Shown one piece after another: positions 7,461-50,568 of a stretch of 50,568 nt of DNA. The position numbers and the translations under genes are program-made. The notes under the pieces are model-generated. The model was not told where the DNA came from. It saw nothing but the letters and a program-made list of their open reading frames with translations, and searched no databases. Source of the stretch: an uncultured Lachnospiraceae bacterium (GTDB lineage Bacteria; Bacillota; Clostridia; Lachnospirales; Lachnospiraceae); contig CANREG010000017.1 in assembly GCA_947629565.1 (NCBI GenBank), forward strand, positions 1-50,568, read 5' to 3'. How positions within the stretch are numbered: position 1 is the first letter of the stretch; the number at the start of each line of letters is the position of its first letter.

Positions 7461-7722
7461 CCATGCAGTCTGCTTTGTGCATCCCCACCAACCGGTTACC
7501 ATGGCAGTTAGCTCGGCCCAGGCGCCCTCACGGCACATGAAAGCTCCTACTTAGTGCTGCTTCGTTCCCGACCTGACACGGTTCATAGGTATCCATTGCG
7601 CGAGACCCAAACGTCAACACCACTTACCATGGCCCGCACTAATGACAATACCCGAGGCAGACCAACACCCCTGCTATAGCGGATTGCAGGTGCAGGGTAC
7701 CGCTACCACCCCGGCTGCATGG
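7461..7722 (-). ncRNA. ffs: Signal recognition particle RNA, large Gram-positive type
   Basis: On the minus strand the domain IV tetraloop region reads GTCAGGTCGGGAACGAAGC, the Ffh-binding hairpin. The 5' Alu-like part contains GGTAGCGG and CTGCAATCCGC, as in clostridial large SRP RNAs. The ends CCATGCAG and CTGCATGG pair to close the molecule, which sets the limits at about 262 bases. A perfect promoter lies upstream at 7747-7775. The RNA forms the signal recognition particle with Ffh and targets membrane and secreted proteins. The exact mature ends are estimated. Confidence 0.92.
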
Positions 7723-39201: not shown

Positions 39202-39210
39202 TAGCCGAAC

Positions 39211-39764
39211 ACAAAATTTGTAACGATTCTCCCCTATTTTGTTGTCCCCCCTTTCAGCGGATATCTTTCTATTATCCGCCTTTTTTTGTGACACCGCCGA
39301 GGGGAATCCTGTCCCTTCGTTCCTGCACTGGTTTCGGTTTTAAGAAATTTTGCGGCCCGCCCGTCCGGCATATTTATTTGCACATGCTCACGAAGAACTC
39401 GCACCGGGAAGGGGTGACTGGGAAACATCGAAAGCCCCTTTAAGAACGCCGGTACTTGCGGAGGACATGAAAATTATCGTTATCGGAAGTTTATATGTCC
39501 TCCGCTTAGTACCGCTGCGTTCTTAACAGAGCGCAAGCGTGGCTTAAGATGTTTTCCCAGCACCCCAAACCCGGTGCTCAGACACTTCTCCGCATGTGCA
39601 TTATGCCGGACGGGCGGGCCGCAAATTTCTAAAAAACCGCGTGTCAGGAACGAAGGGACAGGATTCCCCCTCGGCGGTAAGCCACGAATATTTTCCCGGA
39701 TAATAGAAAGATATCTGCTGAAAGGGGAAATCTGCCAAAAGGGAGAATCGTTACAAATTTGTGT
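39211..39764. repeat. Large imperfect inverted repeat (554 bp, arms about 270 bp)
   Basis: The arms pair in blocks over their whole length. The tips 39214-39233 and 39741-39760 match 20 of 20. Blocks 39251-39278 and 39697-39724 differ at one base; 39293-39325 and 39645-39678 differ by one inserted base; 39344-39372 and 39602-39629 differ by one inserted base; the centre pairs 39458-39468 with 39495-39505. No convincing gene lies inside: the open frames are mirror images on the two arms and lack ribosome sites. It is bounded by the pckA promoter and the abrB terminator. Confidence 0.92.
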
Positions 39765-39765
39765 A

Positions 39766-39808
39766 AGTAAAAAGCAGTCTCCCGTATGGGGAAACTGCTT
39801 TTTATTAT
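39766..39808 (-). terminator. Terminator of abrB, probably bidirectional
   Basis: AAAGCAGT-TCCC pairs with GGGA-ACTGCTTT around a four-base loop, with T runs on both strands. It separates abrB from the large inverted repeat. Confidence 0.85.
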
Positions 39809-48225: not shown

Positions 48226-48296
48226 AGGCGCCAACCAGATTTGAACTGGTGATGAAGGTGTTGCAGACCTCTGCCTTACCACTTGGCTATGGCGCC
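48226..48296 (-). tRNA. tRNA-Cys (GCA)
   Basis: The 71-base sequence folds into a cloverleaf: acceptor GGCGCCA with TGGCGCC and discriminator T, D-loop with AGCCAAGTGGTAAGGC, anticodon GCA in CTGCAAC, and T-arm CCAGTTCAAATCTGG. CCA is not encoded. Confidence 0.97.
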
Positions 48297-50221: not shown

Positions 50222-50293
50222 CTCCCCGAGTAGGGCTCGAACCTACAACACCACGGTTAACAGCCGTGTGCTCTACCATTGAGCTATCAGGGA
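50222..50293 (-). tRNA. tRNA-Asn (GTT)
   Basis: The 72-base cloverleaf has acceptor TCCCTGA with TCGGGGA and discriminator G, D-loop TAGCTCAATGGTAGAGCA, anticodon GTT in CTGTTAACC, and T-arm GTAGGTTCGAGCCCTAC. CCA is not encoded. It follows the 23S rRNA by about 200 bp. Confidence 0.97.
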
Positions 50294-50490: not shown

Positions 50491-50568
50491 GAAGTTAAGC
50501 CTTCGACCGATTAGTACCTGTCAGCTCCATGCGTTGCCGCACTTCCACCTCAGGCCTATCTACCTTGT
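50491..50568 (-). rRNA. 23S rRNA, 3' end (partial)
   Basis: The minus strand reads the conserved end of 23S rRNA, including AAGGTAGATAGGCCTGAGG, AGCTGACAGGTACTAAT and GGTCGAAGGCTTAAC. The rest lies beyond the window. The 3' limit is estimated from the final GGCTTAAC helix. No 5S rRNA follows before tRNA-Asn. Confidence 0.92.

What the first reader, a model, noticed from the sequence alone, without database searches (positions are those of the whole stretch)
39211..39764. A 554-bp near-palindromic element between abrB and pckA
Two arms of about 270 bp are inverted copies of each other with long exact or one-change blocks (20/20 at the tips, then 27/28, then about 33 and 28 with single-base indels), right to the centre near 39481. 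No transposase or credible protein is inside. A single transcript through it would fold into one very long double-stranded hairpin. It is insulated by the abrB terminator on one side and the pckA promoter on the other. Candidates are a non-autonomous mobile element, a large structured RNA, or a DNA-level structure. The indels and mismatches show the arms have diverged, so either it is old or the bulges are kept.
Basis: partly seen in the sequence, partly recalled or inferred. Interest (0 to 1): 0.78.

Follow-up and report, generated by a model that had tools for sequence, protein, structure and literature searches.

The report
Dispersed, self-inverting palindromic DNA element family
The 556-base palindrome is one copy of a large, apparently undescribed family of gene-free, hairpin-forming DNA elements scattered through many gut bacteria related to it, whose arms are kept complementary at the DNA level and which seem to flip over in place.

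Summary
The palindrome is real (39209-39764, 556 bp) and far beyond chance. At least 36 places in its own genome carry its core, a ~105-135-nt asymmetric hairpin (here 39421-39550) at the tip of a longer stem. The element is missing between pckA and abrB in the five relatives found to keep that gene order. A covariance model of the core hits 26 of 26 genomes of the genus and 65 of 150 genera sampled in the family (own included); in a 196-genome class sample all 5 hits are in the family. No Rfam family matches. Pairing is almost strictly Watson-Crick (G-U 1-2%, 0.6-1.5 times A-C), unlike an SRP RNA control (G-U 19%, 34 times A-C), so it is maintained as DNA. Orthologous copies show double changes in both arms and in-place inversions (6 of 15 sites), signatures of template switching between inverted repeats. 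Several short copies carry a module of near-constant length (93-109 nt) on stems specific to each site. Best reading: a non-autonomous, trans-mobilised hairpin DNA element. The enzyme is unknown; Y1 transposases show no association. Draft assemblies limit the inversion claim. A new variant of the repeated-palindrome kind.

The parts
39209..39764 (+). whole palindromic element (556 bp); orientation given by the asymmetric core
   Evidence: other copies in own genome
39209..39420 (+). left arm of the long stem
   Evidence: pairs with 39551-39764:
39421..39550 (+). conserved asymmetric core (model R1, 128.7 bits here)
39447..39457 (+). core motif CGCCGGTACTT, 5' strand
   Evidence: mostly invariant in alignments A1 and A2
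39458..39505 (+). variable apical hairpin (stem 39458-39468 / 39495-39505)
   Evidence: (I6)
39506..39519 (+). core motif TTAGTACCGCTGCG, 3' strand, with a two-base bulge (CT here; pyrimidine then T in the family)
39530..39539 (+). small side hairpin AGC-GCAA-GCG; loop fits GNRA in 109 of 111 distinct rows
39551..39764 (+). right arm of the long stem
39768..39804 (-). terminator-like hairpin between the AbrB-like gene and the element (neighbour, not part)
   Evidence: I5

Best explanation
The element is one copy of a family of gene-free, hairpin-forming DNA elements that, as far as sampled, is confined to one bacterial family (Lachnospiraceae by inference from named records). Shown: a conserved asymmetric core sits at the tip of stems; copies are dispersed, mostly between genes, and this one lies at a site that lacks it in five relatives; stem pairs change together as DNA pairs do; orthologous copies occur in both orientations (subject to the draft assemblies). 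Inferred: the core is recognised, probably as folded single-stranded DNA, by an enzyme supplied in trans that disperses it. Replication template switching between the arms (or other inter-arm conversion) re-matches the stems, inverts elements and possibly writes the site-specific outer stems from flanking DNA. Its value to the host is probably nil, apart from promoting inversions and rearrangements.
For: Dispersal: (26 of 26 genus genomes; own genome 36 listed places at 77 bits or more, list cut off there). Insertion: pckA and abrB adjacent without the core in 5 of 9 relatives that have this pckA. Range: 65 of 150 genera, own included; all 5 hits of 196 class genomes are in the family. DNA-level pairing: G-U 2.3% (long elements) and 1.2% (core), G-U/A-C 1.45 and 0.58, against 18.7% and 34 in SRP RNA. 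Recent changes between orthologues: 40 single differences between a Watson-Crick and an A-C pair, 28 between Watson-Crick and G-U, 17 between Watson-Crick and another mismatch, and 20 double Watson-Crick changes; 13 doubles against a shuffled mean of 0.25, maximum 3 in 2000, in nine same-orientation pairs. Inversions: 6 of 15 two-flank sites G000/G020; 3 of 4 clear long sites G002/G005. Site-specific stems on a constant module: own-stem pairing score median 12-13 against 2 between copies. Template switching is reported to homogenise inverted-repeat arms and invert the spacer (PMC8604942, abstract start seen in the listing).
Against: No mobilising enzyme found: no recurrent neighbour gene, no association with Y1 transposases. 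No consistent target-site duplication. No clean filled/empty pair at base resolution: relatives without the element at pckA-abrB are too diverged there, and the best polymorphic site is a truncated relic. Most sites are filled in both species of a pair, so recent movement was not caught. The genomes are fragmented drafts, so some flips and exchanges between copies could be assembly errors. The GNRA-type loop is a classic RNA motif, though d(GCGNRAGC)-type DNA hairpins are also very stable (recalled, no call).
Confidence: 0.65

Rival explanations
1. A family of large structured noncoding RNAs, each copy transcribed and folded, with the core as the functional RNA domain.
For: Loop of the side hairpin fits GNRA in 109 of 111 rows and 102 cells of the stems, nearly all in P2, are G-A oppositions; unpaired core positions are near-invariant; stable RNA fold.
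Against: G-U pairs are 1-2% of cells and 0.6-1.5 times as common as A-C, against 18.7% and 34 times in SRP RNA of the same genus; no clear preferred strand relative to neighbouring genes; no Rfam match above gathering score (relaxed searches of one copy and eight loci gave only chance-level hits). DNA-level correction could hide an RNA signal, so a function as RNA is not excluded.
Confidence: 0.15
2. A REP/REPIN- or IS200/IS605-type element mobilised as single-stranded DNA by a Y1 (HuH) transposase in trans.
For: Same overall logic: dispersed intergenic hairpins and, at some loci, inverted doublets of the core.
Against: Own genome (85% complete) has no Y1_Tnp match; Y1 is present in 35 of 65 core-positive and 52 of 85 core-negative genomes (overlap counted by hand). 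The element is much longer than a REP; a GTAG-type guide was not sought.
Confidence: 0.06
3. A conventional MITE: an internally deleted DNA transposon with terminal inverted repeats, moved by a DDE transposase, whose core is a passenger.
For: One long subfamily in G002/G005 has recurrent ends TTGCTGTTTA...TAAACAGCAA.
Against: No consistent target duplication in 10 copies; that end was found in G002 and G005 but not in G013 or G004, which carry the core; stems of short copies are site-specific. A transposase gene bounded by these ends was not searched for beyond the fetched loci.
Confidence: 0.08
4. A chance local inverted duplication.
For: None after the copy search.
Against: Dispersed homologous copies with conserved core; fold z-scores.
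Confidence: 0.005

Closest known systems
REP / BIME / REPIN elements with RAYT (TnpA-REP) transposases
   Same: Many intergenic palindromic copies per genome, hairpin-forming, non-autonomous, doublets in inverted orientation; likely mobilised by TnpA-REP (PMC6006769, passages).
   Different: Those are short hairpins (20-40 bp in the abstract of PMC3733652, listing) with a GTAG/GTGG tetranucleotide and a Y1 enzyme; this has a ~100-nt multi-loop core, arms up to about 280 bp in the window copy, and no Y1 association.
MRSC-65-2 motif (Narunsky et al. 2024, PMC11109978)
   Same: Single long stem with strong covariation, often dozens of copies per genome; its authors also say the structure may matter as DNA (passages).
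   Different: MRSC-65-2 is in diverse phyla, has a UYCCGG repeat and is in some instances near a transposase gene; this core has CGCCGGTACTT and a side hairpin, was found only in one family, and has no recurrent neighbour. Their figure and their other MRSC candidates (250 in Table 1) could not be inspected, so identity with one of those is not excluded.
Template-switch homogenisation and inversion of inverted repeats (PMC8604942, PMC8794818)
   Same: Arms made identical by DNA copying and spacer inverted (PMC8604942), hairpin stems created and maintained (PMC8794818); abstract starts and titles in the listing.
   Different: Described there for the yeast lineage and for RNA hairpins; here it would act on a dispersed bacterial element family with long stems.
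Palindrome-type MITEs in general (recalled)
   Same: Gene-free, inverted ends, dispersed.
   Different: No target duplication established, recurrent ends seen in one lineage only, conserved asymmetric core.

Membership tests
REP/REPIN | Y1 (RAYT) transposase in the genome | tested here: not met
   PF01797: no match in own draft genome; 35 of 65 core-positive against 52 of 85 core-negative genomes
[quoted passage not shown]
   Hairpin is far longer; the guide was not searched for
REP/REPIN | Many intergenic palindromic copies per genome | tested here: met
   (4 of 76 examined core places fell inside a crude ORF, 8 at a contig or locus edge)
MITE of a DDE transposon | Terminal inverted repeats shared by copies | tested here: inconclusive
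   Shared ends in the G002/G005 long subfamily; in the copies outer stems are site-specific
MITE of a DDE transposon | Target-site duplication of fixed length | tested here: inconclusive
   No consistent repeat in 10 listed copies; direct repeats at two G016 sites were read by eye only
Rfam / structured RNA | Match to a curated RNA family | tested here: not met
   (window); relaxed searches of one copy and eight loci
Rfam / structured RNA | RNA-type covariation with G-U pairs well above A-C | tested here: not met
   with SRP RNA as positive control
MRSC-65-2 | UYCCGG repeat within a single long stem, many phyla | tested here: inconclusive
   Core alignment shows CGCCGG at the conserved place, and hits stay in one family within the class sampled; the published figure was not seen and no search for UYCCGG was run
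Integron attC site | R/L boxes and integron-integrase context | not tested
   No recurrent neighbour gene in 81 loci

The most novel reading that the evidence does not exclude
A mobile single-strand DNA hairpin of about 100 nt that carries only its core from place to place and builds its own stem afresh from the flanking DNA at each new site by fold-back copying, then keeps that stem matched and flips within it. It would be a class of mobile element whose ends are written by the host locus, served by an unknown enzyme of this bacterial family.
Probability: 0.25. Interest if true: 0.87.

Novelty: new variant of a known kind. Interest (0 to 1): 0.64.

Why it matters
It is an abundant repeat in a large family of gut bacteria and seems to be unnamed (no Rfam release 15 match; not seen in the listings of eight paper searches). 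It offers a natural, replicated record of arm homogenisation and inversion at long palindromes in bacteria, which are usually thought unstable (recalled). It may seed genome rearrangements, and it is a caution that strong 'RNA covariation' can arise at the DNA level. The unknown mobilising enzyme is a defined target to look for.

Tried and rejected
Rfam at gathering and relaxed thresholds: nothing relevant. Recurrent neighbour genes within 2.5 kb of the core in the 81 loci (of those listed) that hold an exact core pattern: only ordinary genes; the largest cluster (8 loci) looks by eye like ABC-type ATPases. Y1 transposase association: none. Viral contigs: 0 matches to one core pattern. Orientation relative to neighbouring genes (crude ORF calls, 76 places in three sets): ++ 21, -- 27, -+ 13, +- 3, inside an ORF 4, edge 8; no clear bias. 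The window copy itself was mis-scored there because of a spurious ORF. Target-site duplications: inconclusive. Clean empty sites: L015's site is filled in G020 too, same orientation on the one flank examined; L369/L407 is a truncated relic; L375/L408 and L368/L409 gave no usable pair.

Corrected on re-reading: I first took the different apical hairpins at L126/L174 (also written in notebook entry 5) for an inversion. One is not the reverse complement of the other, so this is only a sequence difference and is not counted. I had also written that G-U is no commoner than A-C; in the long elements it is 1.45 times as common.

Papers: eight full-text searches, of which two returned nothing; no listed title or abstract start describes this element. 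Passages were read in PMC11109978 and PMC6006769, outline with abstract of PMC2267715; other papers were seen only as listings. Supplements could not be opened.

Counts of R1 matches per genome can include a weak reverse-strand echo of near-palindromic cores (seen), so the 59 matches in the own genome may overstate copies; the 36 places were counted by hand from the cut-off list.

Full report
1. The observation. No credible protein lies inside: ORFs wholly inside are 51, 58 and 64 aa. The neighbours are PEPCK and an AbrB/MazE-fold protein.

2. It is one of many. BLAST of the 554 bases against its own assembly (G000, 100 contigs, 85% complete) gave 41 matches, including itself, fragments and reverse echoes. 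The near relative G020 gave 41 on the same terms. In six other genomes of the genus only a stretch of some 35-45 bases (around query 294-331) matched, and this led to a conserved core. I aligned 24 cores from eight genomes, built covariance model R1 and searched: 26 of 26 genus genomes match, 1 to 78 matches each. In the own genome 36 distinct places are listed at 77 bits or more, where the list was cut off: 28 with core spans like this one (130-138 nt) and 8 with spans of 103-106 nt (hand count). In the family, 65 of 150 genomes, one per genus and own included, match. In the class, 5 of 196 match, all own or same family; one listed family member, G326, does not (both large searches used stricter filters that lose weak matches). 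The pattern scan of named genomes stopped at its limit with 115 stretches, 80 listed, labelled Lachnospiraceae, Eubacteriaceae, Clostridia, Clostridiales or Clostridiaceae, among them Eisenbergiella tayi and Eubacterium sp. MSJ-21, and two labelled Schwartzia and Selenomonadaceae. That the family is Lachnospiraceae is inferred from these labels and from contig C20 of G002 having the length of a contig of Lachnospiraceae SIG310 (258,966 bases). One core pattern has no match in viral contigs.

3. Insertion. pckA was found by DNA similarity in 11 of 26 genus genomes, counting G000 and G020. Of the nine others, five have the AbrB gene next to pckA within the fetched flank, with gaps of roughly 125 to 390 bases; none has the core there. 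In G000 and G020 the gap is about 737 bases and holds the element. So the element was most simply gained at this site in the G000/G020 lineage. The spacers are too diverged to show the exact point.

4. Anatomy. Core: a basal pair block P1; a stem P2; CGCCGGTACTT facing TTAGTACCGCTGCG with a two-base bulge; a variable apical hairpin; and a side hairpin whose loop fits GNRA in 109 of 111 distinct rows. Those rows come from 98 of the loci then held: 119 matches, three reverse-strand echoes dropped, 116 collapsed to 111. Unpaired positions are among the most conserved: TT 109 of 109 rows with letters, the bulge T 110 of 111, the A before the side hairpin 111 of 111, loop G 110, R 111 and A 110 of 111. 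In full-length G000/G020 copies the core sits in a palindrome with about 230-345 bases on either side of its centre. In short copies of G002, and in seven short copies of G000/G020, it is a module of 93-94 or 107-109 nt, between bounds I set by motif, on stems that differ from site to site but pair within each site. Own pairing score median 13 and 12 (minimum 9); between copies median 2 and 2 (maximum 9 and 7); identity of the module between copies median 0.84 and 0.87. Two of eight G002 copies did not fit the bounds and were dropped. Some loci hold two cores in inverted orientation.

5. DNA, not RNA, keeps the pairs. In 48 long copies (of 58 located, those aligning over 380 bases or more), 159 pairs: Watson-Crick 7184, G-U 174, A-C 120, other 126 cells. 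In the core, 111 rows, 22 pairs: 2154, 29, 50, 169. As control, SRP RNA of 24 genus genomes, 84 pairs: 1578, 374, 11, 40 (structures from RNAalifold for the long element and SRP, my model's for the core, whose alignment is fitted to it). Between orthologous G000/G020 copies (15 of 17 pairs; two were missing from the alignment) single differences pair Watson-Crick with A-C 40 times, with G-U 28 times and with another mismatch 17 times, and 20 pairs changed on both sides from one Watson-Crick pair to another. In the nine same-orientation pairs 13 such doubles were seen against a shuffled mean of 0.25, maximum 3. RNA selection should favour G-U intermediates; copying between arms should not.

6. 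Inversion and exchange. Of 24 G000 copies compared, 15 have both flanks matched to one G020 copy: 6 have the element inverted relative to the flanks and 9 do not. Two match on one flank only, three matched none of the G020 copies fetched, and four join flanks that belong to different copies in G020, as expected from recombination between copies. In G002/G005, the same flank is joined to opposite end types at three long sites (L119/L162, L120/L153, L123/L159; at the first and last the G005 contig ends inside the element, so one junction is visible) and to the same type at one (L118/L165). A fifth (L117/L150) is ambiguous because L117 has like ends on both sides. At L369/L407 the G020 copy lacks the core by motif search and its inner stem reads like the reverse complement of the other arm, as after an inversion and a deletion. 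Template switching is reported to homogenise repeat arms and invert the spacer (PMC8604942) and to create and maintain hairpins (PMC8794818); I saw abstract starts and titles only.

7. Results against or unexplained. Of twelve G002 sites, G005 has the core at eight, two run off a contig inside the element, and two lack it (L128/L147, L132/L168), so most copies are not recent arrivals. At L127/L156 both species have the core at the same place but with unrelated stems. At L128/L147 the coding flank is 99.5% identical yet the spacer is different and coreless in G005. No enzyme was found, nor a consistent target duplication. All comparisons rest on draft assemblies, many of whose contigs end in or near these repeats.

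8. Mechanism, in order of support. Shown: dispersal, presence at a site empty in relatives, DNA-type pair maintenance, both orientations at orthologous sites (with the assembly caveat). Inferred: dispersal by an enzyme in trans that recognises the folded core; template switching as the maintainer; stem writing at the insertion site. The last is the boldest and rests on the site-specific stems.

9. Comparison. It works like REP/REPIN elements (dispersed, palindromic, non-autonomous) but does not meet the Y1 test, so it is not filed there. It resembles the 'mobile/repeat sequence candidate' class of PMC11109978 (passages) but seems to differ from its published example in motif and range. I file it as a new variant of a known kind, with moderate-to-high interest.

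Noticed in passing
L042 1491-1593(-)/1772-1875(+); L035 1495-1609(-)/1731-1844(+); L182, L190, L192, L235: Some loci carry two cores in inverted orientation less than 300 bases apart, recalling REPIN doublets.
   Followed up: no
L082 (G021), in the stretch upstream of pckA; outer arms of L036, L040 and L134-L136 (G016): Another palindromic repeat with ends like AGGCAATTGCGAAAC, in G021 without the core and in G016 as the outer arms of core-bearing elements; possible 10-12-base direct repeats outside, read by eye.
   Followed up: no
L128 (G002) and L147 (G005), atpG-atpD spacer: A 200-base coding flank is 99.5% identical between species whose other tested flanks are 85-90% identical, but the spacer is wholly different: recent gene exchange or a replaced spacer.
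   Followed up: partly
L126 (G002) and L174 (G005); other short cores: The apical hairpin occurs in two forms, 5' TGAG facing 3' CGAA or the two swapped, even at one orthologous site; not a simple inversion.
   Followed up: no
L017, L024 (G000) against L063, L064 (G020); L011, L012 against L054, L058, L060: Flanks are exchanged between element copies, consistent with large inversions by recombination between copies, or with assembly chimeras.
   Followed up: partly
L248 and L217: Core matches in contigs labelled Selenomonadaceae and Schwartzia, outside the family: transfer or mis-binning.
   Followed up: no
window 7461-7722 (-), 48226-48296 (-), 50222-50293 (-), 50491-50568 (-): Large SRP RNA, two tRNAs and the end of a 23S rRNA gene in the window.
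   Followed up: no
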